Shown here piece by piece: positions 23,322-40,102 of a stretch of 64,000 nt of DNA (position 1 is its first letter; each line of letters opens with the position of its first letter). A model generated the notes under the pieces. The model was not told the origin of the DNA and ran no database searches. It was given only the letters and a program-made list of their open reading frames with translations. This DNA is from Sordariomycetes sp. S80-01Y (lineage: Eukaryota; Ascomycota; Sordariomycetes). Location: positions 1,798,001-1,862,000 of the forward strand of contig JAXQJY010000031.1 in NCBI GenBank assembly GCA_037042185.1. The letters are read 5' to 3'. Both the position numbers and the translations under genes were made by a program.

Positions 23322-23537
23322 AGGCCACCTTGGACCAAGGCCGACAAGGTGGATTCCAGCCAGGCTGTCGTGGCTACCTCCGGTGCCTTGCAAAACTTCA
23401 CCTCCTACCTCAACGGGACTCTGAACCACCTCGGCACGGCTTTCCAAGGGTCGAGCGAATACATCTCTGAGACCTTAGGTGTACCTCCCGCGCTCGTCTA
23501 CAGCAGCCTTGCCGCAGTTGTTGCTGTTCCGCTGACC

Positions 23538-24449
23538 ATGTCACGATACGGATGGTCAAGGGGAAGCTTCTCCCCGTATAGCTCTATGACCGGAGGCCCC
23601 CCCAATGTAACCGACGAAGACTTCAGCTACATCACCTCGCAAGATCTCGACGATCCGAACCTGGGCGCGCCAATCGACGGCCACCGCGCACGATCAAATC
23701 AATCGCCAGACCCAGAAGACGATGTGCTCCTCATCAAGAACAAAGGTGTCACATACCCGGCGCACTTTCCTGCATATACGATTGGAGATGGCAAGCTGCG
23801 CGTGATGGATGTCAAGGATCGTGTAGGCCTTATGATGGACCTGTCAGACCGGACAATACGTCGCGTCAAGTTGCTGTACAAGGGGAGACAGATGAAGGAG
23901 CCCGCTGCATCTGTGCGCGAGTACGGCGTCAAGAACAAGAGCGAGATCATGGCAGTTGTGCCTGAAGGCGGAGACGGCAGCAGCGCATCAGAGGAGGAAA
24001 TGGTTATCGTTGGTGATGATCGCCCAAGCAAATCATCCAAGAAGAAGAGGAAGGCCAAGAAGAAGAAGGGCGACAAGGGTCCAGACGGCAACTCTACGAG
24101 CAGCCCACGGGATAGCAACTCGGCGTTCGAGCCTCACTCGCCTCCGGGATCAAGTGTCGGCTCAGGACCCGGAAGCAAAGCGAATAAGCAGCTGGATGAG
24201 CTCACGACTGAGTTCCGATCGAAATGGCAGCCGCTTTTCAAGGAATTCATCAAAAACACACCGAGCGATACCAAAAAGCGCGAGGACGAGCACCGCCGAC
24301 TGTCTGAATCAGTCATGCAGCATGTCATCCTCAAGACAGACGGCGTCGAGACCGAAGGCATCCCTGAGATCAGGCAAAGGCGCAAAGACCTGGTGCAAGA
24401 GGTGCAGGCTGCTCTCAAGGAAATCGACAAGGCCAAGGCGTTATTTTAA
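23538..24449 (+). CDS. BAG-domain Hsp70 co-chaperone with ubiquitin-like domain
   Basis: 303 residues from the first available ATG at 23538 (MSRYGWSRG). Domain order: Ser/Pro-rich N-terminus; ubiquitin-like domain at about 62-142 (KGVTYPAHF, then LLYKGRQMKEP); a Ser/acid patch; a Lys-rich segment at 164-180 (KSSKKKRKAKKKKGDK); and a C-terminal BAG domain at about 220-303. BAG proteins stimulate nucleotide exchange on Hsp70. Oddity: the same frame is open back to 23322 with no ATG. The extension is protein-like and ends in a hydrophobic segment (VYSSLAAVVAVPLT), like the membrane anchor of yeast Snl1. A GTG at 23349 has A at -3 and G at +4. A longer membrane-bound form by non-AUG initiation or an upstream exon is possible. 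Confidence 0.88.
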   Translation: MSRYGWSRGSFSPYSSMTGGPPNVTDEDFSYITSQDLDDPNLGAPIDGHRARSNQSPDPEDDVLLIKNKGVTYPAHFPAYTIGDGKLRVMDVKDRVGLMMDLSDRTIRRVKLLYKGRQMKEPAASVREYGVKNKSEIMAVVPEGGDGSSASEEEMVIVGDDRPSKSSKKKRKAKKKKGDKGPDGNSTSSPRDSNSAFEPHSPPGSSVGSGPGSKANKQLDELTTEFRSKWQPLFKEFIKNTPSDTKKREDEHRRLSESVMQHVILKTDGVETEGIPEIRQRRKDLVQEVQAALKEIDKAKALF

Positions 24450-30728: not shown

Positions 30729-31550
30729 TTATCTGCGAGTCTTGTGGCTAGCAGTTTTGGATTTCTTTGTTCGGCTATCAGTCTCCTTGCCCTTGTCTTT
30801 CCGCTTCTTCTCTACCGACAGAGACTGCACGGGGATCTGCTCGACAGGCCGTTCAGCCCAGCACATATTCACACCTGACTCTGGATGCACGTCGATATCC
30901 GGATCGTCGTTGGTGTTGGGAGGCGAACCGTACGGGACGTATCTGTCGTAAAAGCTACGCAACGCAGCATCAGGCGGCCCGAGGTACCCGGTGTAGTTAC
31001 CCTCAGCTGGGCTATGAGGACTGCTGTTGGGGCTGCTTTTGTAGCTCTCACTACTCGAGCTTATGCCCCAGAACGAAGCTCTCGAGCCGGTAGATGATGA
31101 CTCACACCCACCACCGCGGGCATTCATCGGCAAATGCAAGTTATTGCCCGTGGAGAGAGGTAGCTGATGCTTGCCTTGGTAGAAATGGTCAGAAAAGGTA
31201 TGGAAAGGCGACGGCAGGGAGACTCTACCTTTGACCCTGACACAATGCTTACAGCAGCCGTGGTCGCATGTTGCTGCGCCCATATCTGACCACGGAAGCG
31301 TTGGATGAAGAGATGGCATCGTGCACCAGCCGGTGTAGTTGGGCCCGCCCTGGCAGTGGCAGCATATCCAACCTTTGTCCCTTTTTGAAAACTTGCAGGA
31401 CTTGAGCGGGCATGCGTTCATGGACTCTTCGCCGCGAAGGAAGTTCACGTTTTGGCATGGTTGATCTTGCCTGGACTCCTTCGCTGGACAGTGAAGCCAG
31501 GTGACCGACGTGTGGGAGCAAGGGTGGTACATGGGGTTGGCGATGCACAT
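30729..31550 (-). CDS. Cys-rich family protein A (unknown, putative zinc-binding)
   Basis: 273 residues starting with MC. The N-terminal ~105 residues hold the shared module: C2, C11-x-H13, C21, C32, then C47-x4-C52-x8-W61-x-C63-C64-x-C66-x9-C76, and C95-x-H97-x-C99-C100-x2-C103. The two other island genes carry the same core with identical spacing, which shows common descent. Only this copy has a long C-terminal extension: Ser-rich at about 145-180, an acidic patch, then a Lys-rich end (KKRKDKGKE) that could be a nuclear signal. A possible 54-nt GT-AG intron after the module would keep frame either way. There is no signal peptide, so the cysteines more likely bind zinc than form disulfides. 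Function unknown. Confidence 0.65.
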   Translation of the reverse strand: MCIANPMYHPCSHTSVTWLHCPAKESRQDQPCQNVNFLRGEESMNACPLKSCKFSKRDKGWICCHCQGGPNYTGWCTMPSLHPTLPWSDMGAATCDHGCCKHCVRVKGRVSLPSPFHTFSDHFYQGKHQLPLSTGNNLHLPMNARGGGCESSSTGSRASFWGISSSSESYKSSPNSSPHSPAEGNYTGYLGPPDAALRSFYDRYVPYGSPPNTNDDPDIDVHPESGVNMCWAERPVEQIPVQSLSVEKKRKDKGKETDSRTKKSKTASHKTRR

Positions 31551-31688
31551 GATTTCGGCCCACTGCAGAGTTGTTTCGGCTTAGGGATCGGACATTGGCC
31601 TGATGGCGAGGGTATCAAGATCACAGATCGGAAGAGATGAACGACAAGACGCTAGGCTGTCGCTGCCTGGCTCATGTCCCCAGAGCGC

Positions 31689-31694
31689 TTTATA
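31689..31694 (-). promoter_or_regulatory. TATA-like element of paralogue A
   Basis: TATAAA on the minus strand, about 139 bp upstream of the start codon of protein A. Confidence 0.4.
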
Positions 31695-33274
31695 CCTGCG
31701 TCTCCTGTCTTTTTCAGCTGGATGCTCTCTTGGCTCAATTTACCAGATGTGAGCTGCAGGCGTGCTGCACTGGTTTTGTGTCAGGCTGAAGGAACATCTG
31801 ATCCGCGGAGAAGCAGGCCGGAAAACAAAAGTTAATTTGTCCACGGTGATGCACAGACAGGCCTTTGCGGGATTCGACGACATCATGAATCACCTCGAAT
31901 CGTCGACAAGGCTGCTCAGAAGCTGCTGGCGCTGCCATGCTTGTCATTCAGTCTCGAAGTCCGAGTTCCAAAAGAAAAGTGTCTTCAAAAAGGTGCATTC
32001 TCAGCCGGCGCCATATCCATGTTGAAGTTGCAGCTGCGAGAAAGCGGAAAACAAAATCTGCCTGCAATGTCTCAAGACAAGGGGGATAGTCTCCCTGGCA
32101 CCACAAGCTACGATCAGATGGGACCCCGAGTCCGGTCCTCGGTGGAAAGGTTGTCCGGCGTTGCGGCTTCCTGCATCTCTTCGCTGATCGGATAGGCTGA
32201 CAAGTGTCCCGAGAAACAAACCGCACAGAGCCCCCCGCTCTTGGCTGTGATTTTGGGGTCTCGTGTTCGGTGTTCTCCTTGGACCACTTGGCTCAGCATC
32301 TGTCGGTAACCTGTTGCGTAGGGATCAACAAGTGTGGTAACACAAGCGACCCCATGTCTTTTCTGAAGAAGCTTCAGTGGCGCAGCTTCCTCTGACAGAT
32401 AAGCTTGCGAGAGGCGAGATGCAATATATATGGAGCAATCCCAGATGCTGCAGGTCTGAATCGGGCGGCTGATGACAGCCTAGATGGCGGTGATGAGAGA
32501 TTGTCGTCCTTTTCGAGAGGGGCTGTTGAAGAAGAAATCGGGGCGCCGAGATGTTCAAATCGCTTGAACAACACTGCACATCTCCACAGCATGAAAGCTG
32601 ACCAAGAACCAGGCATGGCTTCTGTGTCGTGTTTGATATGACGAGGGCGAGATACCAAACCCCTCATTCAACATGGATCGCGTTGGAGGTCTGGAGGGAA
32701 CCGCCGAGGGGAGAGAAAAGGCCTGCGAAGTGGGCGCTGTTGTCATGCATCTGTCATTCAAGCAAGCGCTCACCCTTGCTGAGGATCCCCCACAAGCAAT
32801 AGGGAAATCTCGTGCATCAGAATGGGCAACCGATCGCTTGGCATCAACTCTTGTTTCCGCGGTCAAGCCGACGCCAGCTTCACACCGAGGAGGTCTCATC
32901 AGATGTTGCCGTGCAGGCTTGGTCTTCAGCATCCGTTGCTTTTCCTAATCCCTCGGCGCGCGCAGCCTTGCAGCAATGCATGTCCAGACTCCGGCCCCGA
33001 AGACCTTTCCTTTTTCTGCGTATCTGCAGCTCCGTTGTCCGCTTCCTGCATCCGAACTACTGCAGTTTGGCCGGGGAATCAGCAAGAATCTGTACATGCA
33101 GTGTCATGATATACGTCTGTTGAGTAATCTAGCTGCAAGAAATGCGTCTAGCTATGCGCTCGGAGCAGACCCTCAGCTAAACAGCAGGGATCGGGCATGC
33201 ATGTGTGCATTTTTGGCATCGTACCATCCCCTTGAATTCAAGAGAGTCAGGGTCCGCCTGGCTCTGTGATGCCG

Positions 33275-33313
33275 ACCCGGAAGCCCGGGGAAACGAGCGC
33301 GGAGCTTCCGGGT
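33275..33313. repeat. 10-bp perfect inverted repeat, 19-nt loop
   Basis: ACCCGGAAGC at 33275-33284 pairs with GCTTCCGGGT at 33304-33313. It lies about 210 bp downstream of the paralogue B stop codon. About one such repeat is expected by chance in a window this size. Confidence 0.7.
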
Positions 33314-33523
33314 GGACGATGCGCTGGTATGTCTCTAAACGTATCGCGTTTGAGACTTTCCCTGACAACGAGATCCTATCATCTCGGCAGCTTGCGAGGA
33401 GAAGTCTCTATAGTTCAAGTGGAATGACGGACTTGGGGAGCATCAGAGAAAGTGGAACAGAGATGGATGTGTGTTGAGAAAGCATAGCTGCGCTACCATC
33501 GGTCCTACTAGCTACAACCCACT

Positions 33524-33856
33524 TCATCTTTTAGAGGCGGGTTCACATGTGACGCAGCAGATGTGCTCGCATCGGTACTCGCCCCCTCCCACGATCATTA
33601 CACACGAACACCTTCCGACATCGTTTCCTGCCTTTCCACACCAGCAACAGTTCCAGTGTCTACCCATCTTCTCGTAGGGACAGTCCTTGAGCTGGCAGGT
33701 AGCCGCAGGAGGAGGGTAGTCGTCCCAGCTAGTGCTGACATCGTGGCACACTTTACGGTCTTTGCCTTTCGACGTGCGTGGCGCTCGGGAGCAATGCTTC
33801 GTAGGCTGGTAGTAGACATGCTCACAAACGAGCGTATATGCATACTGGTGGCACAT
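33524..33856 (-). CDS. Cys-rich family protein B (unknown, putative zinc-binding)
   Basis: 110 residues from MCHQYAY. Conserved positions: C2, C11-x-H13, C22, C37, C54-x4-C59-x8-W68-x-C70-C71-x-C73-x9-C83, and C96-x-H98-x-C100-C101-x2-C104, ending six residues later. It is thus the minimal module. The frame stays open upstream to an ATG at 34147, but that ATG overlaps a TATATAAA element at 34131-34138. The start at 33856 therefore fits better and matches the MC start of both paralogues. No signal peptide or membrane segment. Same strand as A and C. Function unknown; a zinc-binding protein-interaction domain is the simplest guess. Confidence 0.65.
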   Translation of the reverse strand: MCHQYAYTLVCEHVYYQPTKHCSRAPRTSKGKDRKVCHDVSTSWDDYPPPAATCQLKDCPYEKMGRHWNCCWCGKAGNDVGRCSCVMIVGGGEYRCEHICCVTCEPASKR

Positions 33857-34130
33857 TGTCGATGGTCCGGAAATTGCAGTGCAGTGGGAGTATCGAAGTG
33901 GCACTCGTCTTGAAGGTATGCCCTGGTGGTTTGCAGCACAGCAATTGAGGCTAATAGATCCGACGGGTCGGTAAGTGTTATGGTTGGTGCATGTACGAGG
34001 CTGTAAAGGTAAGGCTCCCAAAGCTGAGTTGGGTAAGTCAGATGAGGTGCATAATGTACCTGTGACGGCGACTAGAAAACGGCCCTGATTATGGCCAGGA
34101 AGAAGGTGAAAAGAGGTGGATGTCCCGACA

Positions 34131-34138
34131 TTTATATA
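34131..34138 (-). promoter_or_regulatory. TATA box of paralogue B
   Basis: TATATAAA on the minus strand, 275 bp upstream of the MC start codon. Its position argues against using the ATG at 34147. Confidence 0.5.
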
Positions 34139-34283
34139 CGCGTTCACTTGTCTTATGCTTTATGGGCGCCTCAGACTCCTTGAGCTGCCATCATCGTAAT
34201 TCTGTCCTCTTCGAGTGCTATCTTTGCGAGCTCAAGCTTAGGGCTAGGCCTCTTGGGCAGAGCTACCTTTACAAATAAGGACA

Positions 34284-34309
34284 TGCGATCGCGGAAGCGG
34301 GCGATCGCA
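34284..34309. repeat. 9-bp inverted repeat built on two GCGATCGC palindromes
   Basis: TGCGATCGC at 34284-34292 and GCGATCGCA at 34301-34309, 8-nt spacer. It lies about 430 bp upstream of the paralogue B start, so it could be an operator-like site. Confidence 0.6.
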
Positions 34310-35455
34310 GGACAATGTCTTAATGTCGCCATCCGTAAGAGATCCCGCACGATAAGCGAAAACGAGTTCCAATACGTCCCTGATCATCGGAGTCAGTGGC
34401 TAAGCTGCAAACAGCTTCGTTGAGCCGGCGGCAAACCACCCACAGCCGAGAAGTCTCTACAGTTTGAACGGTGACCTATGGATTCTTCAGCAAAGATGAG
34501 AACTGTTCGGCTATTGGAGGGATAACTATGAATATTGAGCCTGCGAACTAAGTAGAACGTGGCAGCCAGGTCTTGCACGTATTGGGCCCGGCCGGTACAG
34601 GGCGAGCGAGCGGTGAGAGGTGGTCCAGATGGCCAGATCACTCCTCAATGGTGGTCTCATCGCGCGAGCGAACAGGGGAAAGCTGCGGATCATCGGAGGA
34701 GGTCATGTCTGAAAGGACAAGAGAGCGGTGTCTTCGAGCCAGGCTGAGATGGCGACGTGCCAGGCGGAGGCTGTCGACAAGCGCAACCGAAGGACCAGCC
34801 AGGATGCAAATGGCAAAATGATAGGTCTGATTTAGGTTGATTGCCTGCGTCATCTTGTACAACTGACTCTGGGGTGTCTGTCTCTGGGATCCAGGCGTCC
34901 GGATGGACTGGGTGTGGAGATGCGTCGGCTCGAGAGGGAAATGTCTGGAGGGCAACATAGAGGTAGACGGTGTGAGTGTCTGGCCACAAGGCAGCAGTTC
35001 AACTGGGGGATGGGAGAGTGCTGGGTTGCAATTCTTACGGCTCACTGAGGACCTTGTGCAAATTGGTTACAATTTAGCCGGACATATGGAATCTATAGCG
35101 GTAGAAATGACAAACACCCGTTTCTCTTTCACACTGCCCCTGGCCAGAAGGACGATCGCACGAAAGCTTGGCAACAACACACTTGGACGCTATTGACAGG
35201 ACACCCCCAACCAGAAAGAACCAAGCCTTAGAGCTCTAACCCTCTTTTGTGCGCTTGGAGACTTAAGAAACCAGCCTTGAGTCGCGCCTCGCAGCTCTTC
35301 CCGGGAGGCAATGTCTCGCATCGGCAACCTATTGGTGAACCCTCCAAGCCTCCATACCCGATCCCTGACTCGTTTTATTTTCACCTCGAATGCTCTGGCT
35401 CCGCATTCAGTCCCATCGACATTGCCCCGTGGAGGTCACTCCCCGCCGGGTCCCA

Positions 35456-35821
35456 TCAAGACCTATCCTCCTTGCAGCCGTGGCAGACGGTGTGGTAGCA
35501 AAAGGTATCCGGACTCCCCTTCTTCTTGTGTCTGCACCACCGGCTCGTGTTTCTGCCCCTCTTGCACCGGCAGCAAACCCACCTGCCCCTCAGGTCCGCC
35601 AGGCGACAGCCCCCGCTGGTACACTCGGGGGCGGGGAGGCAGTTGCCTGAGGAGCAGACGGCGGACGCGCTGGGGTCGACGAAGACCTGGGAGCAGGGGG
35701 AAGCCTGGCCCGTCATGGGGTTGAGGGTCGCCATGGAGCACCAGGAGAACTGCTCCTGATATTCTGTGGGACGGTTGCAGGGGTGGACGTGGTGGTGGTG
35801 GAGGTAGAAGGCGATGCACAT
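35456..35821 (-). CDS. Cys-rich family protein C (unknown, putative zinc-binding)
   Basis: 121 residues starting MCIAFYLHHHHVHPC. Conserved positions: C2, C15, C28, C43, C56, C67-x4-C72-x8-W81-x-C83-C84-x-C86-x9-C96, and C108-x-H110-x2-C113-x2-C116, ending five residues later. The core spacing equals that of A and B, while the N-terminal cysteines are more widely spaced, with an added His run at residues 8-13. There is no signal peptide. The sequence between Cys positions has diverged strongly from A and B, so the duplication is old or evolution is fast. Function unknown. Confidence 0.65.
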   Translation of the reverse strand: MCIAFYLHHHHVHPCNRPTEYQEQFSWCSMATLNPMTGQASPCSQVFVDPSASAVCSSGNCLPAPECTSGGCRLADLRGRWVCCRCKRGRNTSRWCRHKKKGSPDTFCYHTVCHGCKEDRS

Positions 35822-38689
35822 CTTGGGGGTGGCCGGCCCTCGAGGGCTTGAGCGACCTAGGCGGGGAGAGAAAGCTATCCTGGACTGGAGGGAGGCGCTC
35901 CGTGATGCGGCCGAGATGTGATAGCTCAGGGGAGGCGTGTTGTACCTGGGCTCGTACTTGGCTGATGTGTCTCGGGCTACTGCTGTTGCGCCGGCTGGGA
36001 TAGGGTTGCGCAGGCTCGAGTTGACACTTGACGATTGTGCTGGGAGGGGTTTTATTCGTATGTCAGAGGGGCTGATAAATTGACAGCTGCTTCTCGTATT
36101 TGACGGATCTTTGAGAGTTGCGACTTTGCGGTGAGGCGCTGGCGTGGTGACCGGCAGTGCTGGCGGGAGGAGACGTAGGTACCCGTCTCAGGGGCTGGGG
36201 GCAAGCAGATGGCAGAGTTTTCCTCGACTCAAAGCTAGACGCCTGGTCTTTGGCTGTTCGAGTAGAGTGCTCTGAGAGAAGATTTGACTATGAGGTATAG
36301 CTAGCCTCTTGGGAAATTGGTCCTGTGTGGCTTCGCGGTAGATATTCAAGTGGCGTCTGAGGTCTTTCGCCCAGCAAAGCATAGCGCGAAGAGTCTGGGG
36401 CAGTCAGTGATCAGCACAGAAACCCCAGTCTGCGAAACTAGACGTCTTTGCCCTCGTCTTATGAGTCTATTCCAACGTGGTCGCGGGGTTGCAGCTTTGC
36501 CGGATCCTCAGCCGTCGTTTCAACTCTCGAGTCGCGGTGCGACTTGCGGGCCGTGGGGACGTCTGACTCTGCAACTCGAGGGCTTTCTCCGGAAACAACG
36601 AATGGCTCTCTCGGGGGTAACAGGGAGCTGCTGTGCGCTGCCAGAATGTCTGATACTGCAAGTCTCTGTGGGCTGGCCCGCTGTCGGCTCTGCGTCTGTC
36701 GCGGGGGAGGCTGTCGAGCGAGCGTTCGTGATGTTGATGAGTAGGAGTCATCTCCAGAACCGCCGCGACCATTCCATCTTATACCCAATCGCCTCAGCCG
36801 CCAGTTGTGATTCCCATCGCAGCCCTGGACGTACCGGCGCCTCTCATGGTCAGCCCTCGTCCTCAACACCCTCGGGTCATCTCGCTCAGCGTTCACATCA
36901 ACCTCGTCTCGTCCGGTATCCATCTAAGCCATGTCCAACCCACCCTTGTGACAAGAAGCGCGCAGCTTCCTGCATAGTTTGCACGTGGCGTTCGCATGGT
37001 CTGGCGCCGCTGTGACGGCCAGTTGGGCCGCGCGGGCGTGGGATGGTGAGACGAGAGGACGAGGGAATTCTGAGACATCGTCCAGACTGTGAGCACCGTG
37101 ACGTATATTCGGGCCTCAGACGACGGGCGGTTTTCGAATAGAGTGGTCTTGGAGTAACAAGCGCGCAACCAAGCGAGCGGGCCGGTTCGGATGAAGGCGA
37201 TGGAGTCCAGCCGTAGCTTAATAGACCGGAACCGTTCCTCGTAACAGAAGTTACTCTCGGAGCAGAAGAAAGCCTCTATTGGTCGTTGCTCATCCGTCGG
37301 CGAGCCGTCGTGAGCCAAGGCAACCCCGTGCAACGGAAGCTTCAATATTCTTCTGGAAGGTTTCCTGGTCGACGAAGCTTGGGTAACCAAAGACGGATGA
37401 CAACGTGAGGTCTGTCCGCACTAAGGACCGAATGTGCTCGTCGGTGCTGTTCCTGTCATTCGGCGCCGGCATGACCCCTGAAAGTCCGGACGAGAATAGG
37501 GGTTGCCGCTCGCTTGGCTCCGAGGCCGTTAAGAAGCGGCCGCTTGCGAGACGTAATTGTGCTGCTGTAAATGTGACAGGCAGTGCAGGAGGACCGGTCC
37601 AGGTGCTCCGAGGGGAATGTTGACGTAGGCCAACCCAGACCCTCATGGCTACAGGGGTTTCGTGGAAGTGAGGACCTTCGAGGTCCGCACGCCGTGCAAT
37701 CACGCTGGAACCACAGTGAGCACACACGGAATGCCAGGCCAGCGGAAACGACATTGGTGCGAACTGGCCGTTTCCTACCGTCTTGTCAGTGAACAATGAG
37801 TATGGTCTGGCCGCAGAGCTGTCGCTGCCGAAGTGTCAACATTGCTAACACCGTGCGTGCAGTTGTACGGTGACAGTAGAATGCGCAGGCCGGGCTTGTG
37901 CATGCTTAACAGGCTACTGCAAGCAGAGTTCGTCCGATCAAGGGGCTCCTAGTCCGTCACCGTTGCTTGGTGGCACAACAACGTGCACCGCGTCTCGAGA
38001 CAAGGGCTCGGGCTCGCGACGTTTTGGTAGTTCTTATGAAGGATGCAGCTCTCACGCTCTCCGTCTGCATGGAAAACGGCACGTCCGGGGAAACCCACGT
38101 GGTGTCACTCAGGGGTCCCTTTGAAGCGAAGGCTGATACCAGGGGCGTCGACAGCAGGAAAGCAACTCTGTTGGGTCAGCGATGGATAGTCAGGGAGTTC
38201 TCACAGAGCGAGGGGCATGGCTTCAACGACCGACCCGAGATTTGCAATAATGGTGCCGTTCGTGGGCTTTACGACTTCCTTCTCCAGCCTGCCATACGTT
38301 TGATCCTGGAAAACCCATGCTGCATGAACCTGCCGGCGCTTCGGCGGACCATGCATGAGCGTCAATTAAGACATGCTTGGGACGAATGTTCCCCCATCGG
38401 TTGCACAGGCGCAAGTCCCTACCAAGGTAGTCTGTACGACTTCGTTCCGCTACCGGCGAGGTACCCGTAACAGGAGAACGCCGAAATCCTAGCACGGCGT
38501 CGGTCCCATTGGACCCGTGGGCAAGGAACCTTTGTTAAGCAACCGTGAAGTTAGGCGAAGGAAAGCGAAGAGGAGAGCTTCAAGTGAATGTGAAACAAGT
38601 GTTTATTGTAACGCCGGTTTTGCCAGTACGGCAATGCCCAAGATATCCAAAACGCCTTACATGCTGTACATTGGCAATCGTAACGTGGC
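35822..38689. other. 2.9-kb stretch without supported genes, right edge of the island
   Basis: Several medium-length frames occur on both strands (for example 36317-37015 plus, 36459-36923 minus, 37290-37796 minus, 37967-38470 plus) but overlap each other and show no domain or credible exon chain. A minus-strand frame near 36940-37080 has one C-x2-C-x6-C, half of a zinc cluster, and then stops; probably chance. A diverged or decayed gene cannot be excluded. Confidence 0.35.
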
Positions 38690-40102
38690 TCAAAACCTGG
38701 GGATTATCAGTCGCTGTCTGCATTAAGGTTGCCGCAAGGTATACTGACCTTATCTCATATGATCCAGCTCTCGTCATGTAACGCACCCACTTGACACTTG
38801 AGTAGTTGTTCTTCTCAAACACCTTGAGGTACCGAACCAGCAGCCCGGAGCTCGTAAACATGAGCAGGCTGAAGTTCATGCTCAGGGGCGGCCTGCTCCA
38901 AGCACGCTGGTTGGTCATACTCGTAAGCAAGGCCTCTGCGCTGAGCACAAACTCGCTTTGGCCAGTGAAGCGGGAGATCTTCCAGACAATGACGTTTTCC
39001 GACGGCTCGTACTTGGCCTTGCCGTTTGTGCAGCGCTCAATGATCTTGGCAGTGTTCAGTGGCGTTGGAATTTTAATGACGACGTTGGTTGCAAAGAGCT
39101 TGGGACCGAAGTTGGCCTTCACACCGATGCTGTACTCGACCTTGGACCGGCCAACCTCATTGACAATAGCGTGGACCTTGAAAGGCAGGTTGACGTTCTC
39201 CGTGGCTCGATAGCGCATCAGCTCGAATTCGCCGTCTGGGGGCACGAAGCTGATGATTCGGTCCGTGTCAAACTTGCCCAACTTGACGCACTGGTGGAAC
39301 TGACAGTCCTCCAACGTCACACTGCCAGCTGCGGCCTTGGTAGCCTTGGTGCCCATGCGGTTCCCGCTAGGAAGGGTGTGGAGACCATCGTTATCGAGGA
39401 GGAGACGGTCGTTCAGGCCGAACTTGCACTCGGGCGTGCCTGAGAGATAGGCGCGCATCACGATCTGACCGCTGACATCGGCGCGCAGAACAGCTCCGGT
39501 GGCTGACATGAGGAGGTTAATGTCCTCAATGACGTCGACGAATGCCTCGTTCTTGCGATACTTGACATCTGCTTTCCGCCACGACAGCGCGCCGGTGGCT
39601 TGCATGGTGATCTTGGAGGTGTCTTCGGGCCGCGACTCGGACTTGACGCCTTCTGTGGTGATGTACATTTTCAGGGTATCGGTCTCGGTGTTTTGCGGGT
39701 AGCCAAAGTCGATGATTTCTGGTCAAGTCAGCAGCAATTCTTACAAGTTGATGTTTACGCCGTACCGTCCAACAGCTCGTAAACAAGAACAAAGTTGTTT
39801 TTGACAGCCTCCTCGTCGAATTTGCCAAAGTATCCCTTTCCAAGCTGAATCAAGCGGTACAAGAACTCGAAGACAAGCGCAGCATTGGCGTTGCTCTTGG
39901 TAATAGCCACCAGGTATATGTTCTCGTGCTTGACATGGCTGAAGGTGGTGCTGCCCAGCGTCAAGATGGGCGACCGAACCTGCGCATTGGAAATGACCTG
40001 GATGCGGAAGACATCGGCGAGGCGCGGGCGGCAGTCGTTGCGAAAGGCGCGGAAGATGAGGTTCTCGCCCTTCTGATTGAAGATGAGGACGCCTGATAGC
40101 AT
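38690..40102 (-). CDS. apm4: AP-2 clathrin adaptor complex mu subunit
   Basis: Three exons (39766-40102, 38749-39718, 38690-38696) give 437 residues, the normal length. The N-terminal longin-like domain begins MLSGVLIFNQKGENLI. Splicing of the 47-nt intron 39719-39765 restores the family block ELLDEIIDFGYPQNTE. The C-terminal mu-homology domain spans about residues 175-437 and binds tyrosine-based cargo signals. The last intron (38697-38748) leaves a final coding exon of 7 nt that supplies the last two residues (RF) and the stop, completing the conserved WVRYMTRAGSYEIRF end. The unspliced frame would add about 40 unrelated residues. Role: clathrin-mediated endocytosis and polar growth. Confidence 0.95.

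What the first reader, a model, noticed from the sequence alone, without database searches (positions are those of the whole stretch)
30729..35821. Three same-strand paralogues of an unrecognised Cys/His-rich family
Three genes (31550, 33856 and 35821 as starts, all minus strand) begin with MC. They share an exactly spaced core C-x4-C-x8-W-x-C-C-x-C-x9-C, then C-x-H-x(1,2)-C-(C)-x2-C after a variable gap of 11-18 residues. Between these positions the sequences are unrelated, so the cysteine scaffold is under strong selection while the rest diverges. No signal peptide is seen, so a zinc-binding intracellular fold (cross-brace or treble-clef-like) is more likely than a disulfide-rich secreted protein. 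I recall unnamed fungal proteins starting 'MC...C-x-H' but cannot place this core in a named family.
Basis: partly seen in the sequence, partly recalled or inferred. Interest (0 to 1): 0.75.

Follow-up and report, generated by a model that had tools for sequence, protein, structure and literature searches.

The report
Unnamed fungal zinc-like paralogue trio
Three neighbouring genes in a fungus encode distantly related small proteins built on the same cysteine/histidine skeleton; relatives, often apparently on the same stretch of chromosome, occur widely in one large class of moulds, yet no protein-family database that was searched names them and what they do is unknown.

Summary
Confirmed. The three minus-strand genes carry exactly the described core: three occurrences in the window's six frames, none in 60 random resamples. 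They are homologous by profile comparison. Searches returned 179 proteins in three groups (A, B, C), one per window gene. The named hits listed are Sordariomycetes, as far as looked up or recalled. The genes look like an old cluster transcribed C-B-A. This is inferred from pairs: in 8 of 8 named assemblies with two groups listed, both share a printed contig length or have near-consecutive locus tags, and one Cytospora gene model fuses C to B. No named assembly showed all three. No significant Pfam, NCBIfam or PDB match was found, and the predicted folds match no solved structure significantly.

Zinc binding, localisation and function are inferred, not shown. RING, RanBP2 and PHD consensus patterns fail in all 182 proteins tested. 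A real, unnamed family: moderately interesting.

The parts
30729..31550 (-). Gene A (group A): exon 1 31229-31550, predicted in-frame intron 31175-31228, exon 2 30729-31174; 273-codon ORF, 255 aa if spliced
31488..31547 (-). Gene A N-terminal module, C2 to C21 (C-x8-C-x-H-x7-C)
31323..31412 (-). Gene A core C-x4-C-x8-W-x-C-C-x-C-x4-N-x4-C (C47 to C76)
31242..31268 (-). Gene A tail motif C-D-H-G-C-C-K-H-C (C95 to C103)
31175..31228 (-). Predicted 54-nt in-frame intron of gene A (GT...AG)
   Evidence: relative P0062 lacking the stretch
33524..33856 (-). Gene B (group B), 110 aa
33791..33853 (-). Gene B N-terminal module, C2 to C22 (C-x8-C-E-H-x8-C)
33608..33697 (-). Gene B core (C54 to C83)
33545..33571 (-). 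Gene B tail motif C-E-H-I-C-C-V-T-C (C96 to C104)
35456..35821 (-). Gene C (group C), 121 aa
35738..35818 (-). Gene C N-terminal module, C2, HHHH, C15, C28
35534..35623 (-). Gene C core (C67 to C96)
35474..35500 (-). Gene C tail motif C-Y-H-T-V-C-H-G-C (C108 to C116)

Best explanation
The three genes are ancient paralogues forming a probably conserved cluster (transcribed in the order C, B, A) that encodes an unnamed family of small intracellular proteins folded around structural zinc ions. An N-terminal Cys/His module (C2, a Cys with a flanking His, a third Cys, and the later invariant Cys) and a C-terminal knuckle domain (C-x4-C, W-x-C-C-x-C, C, C-x-H, C-x2-C) would together hold about three zincs. 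The rigid surface left between the knuckles would bind protein or RNA. A's long Ser-rich tail ending in Lys/Arg clusters would take it to the nucleus; B and C would act as free-standing modules or partners. Shown: homology, scaffold conservation, three groups, no N-terminal hydrophobic stretch, basic A tails. Inferred: zinc, number of sites, nuclear location, binding role, partnership.
For: Core and paralogy: (hhalign probabilities 96.8, 97.9, 98.7). In a 64-member alignment 11 Cys/His columns plus one Trp and one Asn are identical in 64 of 64, and C2, C15 and C28 in 63, 63 and 62 of 64. Groups: A 77, B 56, C 46 of 182 proteins, 3 unassigned for lack of a tail motif; B and C are single clades with support 100/100 and 100/99. 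No hydrophobic N-terminus in the three window proteins (maximum 10-residue Kyte-Doolittle mean 0.19-0.40 with Cys set to 0), and 58 of 61 A-group proteins with a tail of 40 or more residues have a 20-residue stretch with at least 7 Lys/Arg. AlphaFold model of C: mean pLDDT 88, five models 85-88, with residues 71-121 at 91-96 although beyond residue 76 there is only one strand of three or more residues, as expected of metal-stabilised knuckles. Linkage: with names. Purifying selection between gene A and its diverged copy: dN 0.13, dS 0.71.
Against: No metal-site geometry could be measured. Gene B's model is poor in four of five runs (82.3, then 55.8, 53.5, 42.5, 41.0). No fold match supports a known zinc fold. 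No expression, localisation or binding data. The tree rests on 64 columns, its bootstrap had not settled, and it does not make A a single clade.
Confidence: 0.55

Rival explanations
1. Metal-buffering or metal-sensing proteins: the many thiols bind or chaperone Zn, Cu or Cd in a metallothionein-like way, and the cluster is induced by metal or oxidative stress.
For: 15 Cys in 110 aa (B), 15 in 121 (C), 16 in the 273-codon A ORF. CCCCT, recalled as a stress-response-like motif, occurs four times in 400 nt upstream of C (not tested against chance).
Against: Invariant Trp and Asn, one invariant His and fixed spacings suggest a folded structural domain; metallothioneins are recalled as having few aromatics and little fold. 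The C model is confident as a folded domain.
Confidence: 0.15
2. RING-like half-domain acting in ubiquitin transfer or as a partner of a RING protein.
For: C-x-H-x2-C-x2-C matches the middle of RING sequences: PF00097 in 1 of 7 members at E 0.0047, below its cut-off; TRAF6 and RNF4 at E 0.41 and 4.3 in the PDB sequence search. Five Parkin and HOIP chains are among the 19 Foldseek rows, all at E above 5.
Against: The final C-x2-C pair of RING is absent: 0 of 182 match a full RING pattern. At least half of the B and C proteins end within eight residues of the last Cys (median tails 6 and 8). All RING matches are insignificant.
Confidence: 0.1
3. Unconventionally secreted small Cys-rich effectors with disulfides.
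For: Small, Cys-rich; several hits come from genera recalled as plant-associated.
Against: No hydrophobic N-terminus. The window's B and C have an odd number of Cys, and the scaffold includes an invariant His, Trp and Asn. Hits also come from genera recalled as mainly saprotrophic (Chaetomium, Xylaria, Coniochaeta, Trichoderma), and conservation is class-wide rather than host-specific.
Confidence: 0.07

Closest known systems
RanBP2-type zinc finger (consensus R/K-x-G-D-W-x-C-x(2,4)-C-x3-N-x6-C-x2-C, passage of PMC7154859 read)
   Same: W-x-C-x2-C followed by an invariant Asn and a further Cys; small self-contained zinc module
   Different: Asn comes after four residues instead of three; the next Cys after four instead of six; the distal C-x2-C is replaced by C-x-H...C-x2-C at a distance; 0 of 182 match the pattern
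RING finger (PF00097 and relatives)
   Same: C-x-H-x2-C-x2-C central segment
   Different: The closing C-x2-C is missing; 0 of 182 match; only sub-threshold or insignificant profile hits
Unnamed 'hypothetical' proteins of Sordariomycetes, e.g. CTRU02_211558/211559, MCOR27_000583/000585, VDAG_07213
   Same: These are the true relatives: same core, N-terminal module and tail
   Different: They fall in three groups with group-specific tails (CEHICC; CYH; CDHGCC or CGHGCC in most) and linkers. The name fields seen call them hypothetical, uncharacterised or unnamed, apart from P0088, which one source labels CCHC-type domain-containing, and P0111 and P0120, whose source names are not functional names

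Membership tests
RanBP2-type zinc finger | W-x-C-x(2,4)-C proximal half | tested here: met
   W-x-C-C-x-C in all 182 proteins
RanBP2-type zinc finger | C-x3-N-x6-C-x2-C distal half | tested here: not met
   0 of 182 match the pattern; they have C-x4-N-x4-C
RING finger | Eight-ligand pattern with closing C-x2-C | tested here: not met
   0 of 182; the pattern used was recalled
RING finger | Pfam RING profile above its cut-off | tested here: not met
   Best 17.2 bits against 21 in 1 of 7 members; none for the three window proteins
RING finger / treble clef | Cross-brace or treble-clef fold | tested here: inconclusive
   No significant Foldseek or VIA match; coordinates not available
PHD finger | C4-H-C3 pattern | tested here: not met
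   0 of 182; pattern recalled
Metallothionein-like protein | High-stoichiometry metal-thiolate binding | not testable with these tools
   Needs protein and metal analysis
Secreted cysteine-rich effector | N-terminal signal peptide | tested here: not met
   Maximum 10-residue hydropathy 0.19-0.40 in the first 40 residues of the three window proteins; a rough measure, not a signal-peptide predictor
The unnamed A/B/C family | Core spacing, N-terminal Cys/His module and C-x-H-x(1,2)-C-(C)-x2-C tail | tested here: met
   Core in 182 of 182, with the exact spacing in 172; tail in 179 of 182; N-terminal C-x-H form in 77 of 77 A and 53 of 56 B; HHH form in 30 of 46 C, and 10 of the 15 C misses printed have H-Y-H-H
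Conserved C-B-A gene cluster | Members of different groups adjacent in other genomes | tested here: inconclusive
   8 of 8 named assemblies with two groups listed have the same printed contig length (7) or tags two apart (1), plus a fused C-B gene model; no named assembly had all three listed; intergenic DNA was not read

The most novel reading that the evidence does not exclude
The three paralogues are subunits of one class-wide (Sordariomycetes) hetero-oligomeric zinc complex with a new zinc fold, acting in the nucleus on RNA or chromatin and kept together as an old co-regulated gene trio, an unrecognised regulatory module of these fungi.
Probability: 0.15. Interest if true: 0.65.

Novelty: new variant of a known kind. 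Interest (0 to 1): 0.45.

Why it matters
A protein family with a nearly unchanging Cys/His skeleton spread over at least eight orders of fungi, and an apparently long-kept trio of its genes, has no family entry in the databases searched and no known function. Genes kept side by side for that long often work together, so the trio is a concrete target for finding a new zinc fold and a new piece of mould biology, in saprotrophs and pathogens alike.

Tried and rejected
Pfam and NCBIfam on the three proteins: 0 Pfam; one NCBIfam chance match (E 0.025, 14 bits against a 340-bit cut-off). Pfam on 42 B-group members listed 34 families at E up to 10 (25 shown), none for the window's B. The lowest E-values were DUF4614 (0.0013, 9 members) and AP3D1 (0.0021, 2 members); I read these as matches to the Ser/Lys-rich linker, not to the core, but did not see the aligned stretches. 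PDB by sequence: none for B or for the B profile; for the mixed profile only two weak RING hits. Foldseek (PDB only; no library of predicted cellular structures was on hand) and VIA with both models: nothing significant. Five ribosomal-particle rows with chains of 50-52 aa and five Parkin/HOIP rows among the 19 are all at E above 4 and were not taken as evidence. A zinc-ribbon/paralogue literature search, a lineage-specific-gene search, a RanBP2 search and a zinc-fold search were seen as listings; no listed title or abstract start concerns these genes. Passages of two papers were read. Twelve locus tags and six motif strings gave 0 papers. One search required two terms to match and so tested little; five of its tags were repeated with one term required. 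Upstream 400 nt: a TATA box in A and B but not C, CCCCT only in C; no common element among the three patterns looked for. The weak second hit of gene B in its own genome (E 2.14) was rejected as noise. The broken second copy of A shows more C-to-T and G-to-A (29 of 60 differences) than the reverse (16 of 60), but the locus' dinucleotide indices (0.92 and 1.15) are not clearly RIP-like, so RIP was not claimed.

Not reached: expression data, DNA of related fungal genomes, model coordinates, and the 70 hits beyond the 120 listed. The host fungus was not identified beyond likely Sordariomycetes. The 179 relatives were found with queries carrying the core, so core retention among them is partly ascertainment. 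PHROGs and PADLOC were not searched.
Full report
WHAT WAS CHECKED. The window lies in an unnamed 30.9 Mb assembly of 16 contigs. The three genes start at 31550 (A), 33856 (B) and 35821 (C) on the minus strand, each with MC. In the window's six frames the exact core occurs three times, in these genes only, and 0 times in 60 first-order Markov resamples.

First, the N-terminus is conserved too. A and B start C2-x8-C-x-H-x7/8-C, and C starts C2...HHHH...C15...C28. In an alignment of 64 members of all three groups, C43, C67, C72, W81, C83, C84, C86, N91, C96, C108, H110, C113 and C116 (C numbering) are identical in 64 of 64, and C2, C15 and C28 in 63, 63 and 62. Group C has two more conserved Cys (C56 nearly invariant, C61 invariant among 37) that repeat the C-x4-C spacing. 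Second, gene A has a predicted 54-nt intron at 31175-31228 that keeps the frame open, so the 273-codon ORF overstates the protein; the spliced form is 255 aa. P0062, a 254-aa relative, lacks that stretch, although P0061 (100% over residues 1-110, 273 aa) is recorded unspliced. The second genomic copy has a 55-nt GT...AG stretch with an in-frame stop at the same place. Third, a diverged A-type copy lies at C15:109039-109359 of the same genome (74% identity, one in-frame stop in the coding part). Against gene A over 107 codons, less the stop codon, dN is 0.13 and dS 0.71, so the sequence was mostly under purifying selection before or apart from the break.

RELATIVES. Three protein searches gave 60 of 78 candidates (alignment of the three), 5 of 5 (gene A) and 190 of 1248, of which 120 were listed (mixed A/C alignment): 179 different proteins in all. 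With the three window proteins (182), the exact core including the Asn is in 172 and a version with slack of one or two residues is in all 182. These were found with queries bearing the core, so this is partly ascertainment. By tail motif they sort into A 77, B 56 and C 46, with 3 lacking a tail. A maximum-likelihood tree of 168 distinct cores (from 178 of 182 with core and tail matched; 64 columns) makes B and C single clades (100/100 and 100/99). A is one side of a branch in none of 200 bootstrap trees, so B or C may have arisen from an A-like gene; the tree is rough, its bootstrap had not settled. Profile comparison makes the three groups homologous: B-C 96.8%, B-A 97.9%, C-A 98.7%. Named hits come from Colletotrichum, Xylaria, Pyricularia, Sporothrix, Coniochaeta, Scedosporium, Sarocladium and Rhypophila, whose lineages I looked up (Sordariomycetes, eight orders), and from further genera that I recall as Sordariomycetes; the Discula look-up was ambiguous. 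Among the listed rows I saw no A-type hit from a genus that I recall as Sordariales, Diaporthales or Magnaporthales, but 70 rows were not shown.

A PROBABLY CONSERVED TRIO. Of the named assemblies with two groups among the listed hits, 8 of 8 show linkage (rows picked by eye and tabulated). Seven share the printed contig length: C. cereale (B, C; 85 kb), C. truncatum (B, A; tags 211558 and 211559), C. tanaceti (C, A; tags 11702 and 11704; 126 kb), Cladorrhinum PSN259 (B, C; 421 kb), Xylariaceae FL1651 (C, A; 284 kb), Xylaria nigripes (C, A; 2.4 Mb) and Plectosphaerella cucumerina (C, A; 6.5 Mb, so weak). In Pyricularia oryzae MCOR27 the tags are 000583 (C) and 000585 (B), with slightly different printed contig lengths for the two protein clusters. 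Three unnamed contigs (25.6 kb, 32.6 kb and 939 kb, the last near-identical to this window) and one Colletotrichum contig (245 kb, through a cluster of three sequences) also carry two groups. In Cytospora chrysosperma one gene model (P0003) runs from a C-type N-terminus into a B-type core, as expected if C lies just upstream of B on the same strand, as here. Against: no named assembly had all three groups among the listed rows, so the trio outside this window is put together from pairs. Equal printed contig length is not proof of one contig. Verticillium dahliae has A and C hits from different strains and cannot be compared. I did not read the DNA between these genes elsewhere.

MECHANISM. Most likely these are intracellular structural zinc proteins. 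Support: invariant Cys/His scaffold with invariant Trp and Asn, no hydrophobic N-terminus, and a strongly basic, Ser-rich tail in 58 of 61 A-group proteins with a tail of 40 or more residues, which suggests the nucleus. Zinc, site number, location and ligand are inferred. Rivals are metal buffering, a RING-like role and unconventional secretion.

VERDICT. It is an unnamed fungal family of zinc-finger-like proteins with a probably conserved gene trio. In the open-licence library twelve locus tags and six motif strings gave no paper; that is a small sample. The neighbours looked at are ordinary, for example an adaptor medium subunit at 38.6 kb and a PLD-like protein at 40.7 kb.

Noticed in passing
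L004:1501-2305 (G000:C15 about 109 kb): A diverged second copy of gene A with one early in-frame stop and a non-frame-keeping intron; detectable homology to gene A starts only about 40 nt before the ATG.
   Followed up: partly
L004:413-940: An ORF beside the broken copy weakly matches PigL_N (PF17111, E 0.002, below its cut-off).
   Followed up: no
window 35738-35821 and group C: Group C replaces the C-x-H of A and B by a run of His before the second Cys (HHHH or HYHH in most) and adds a second C-x4-C; a possible change of zinc ligand.
   Followed up: partly
P0003 (Cytospora chrysosperma VSDG_06336): Public gene model that appears to fuse a C-type gene to the B-type gene downstream; probably a mis-annotation.
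   Followed up: partly
window 35822-36221: Four CCCCT motifs in 400 nt upstream of gene C, none upstream of A or B; not tested against chance.
   Followed up: no
window 38583-39668 and 23349-24446: Clathrin-adaptor medium subunit C-terminal part and a BAG-domain protein with a weak ubiquitin-like match flank the trio at some distance.
   Followed up: no
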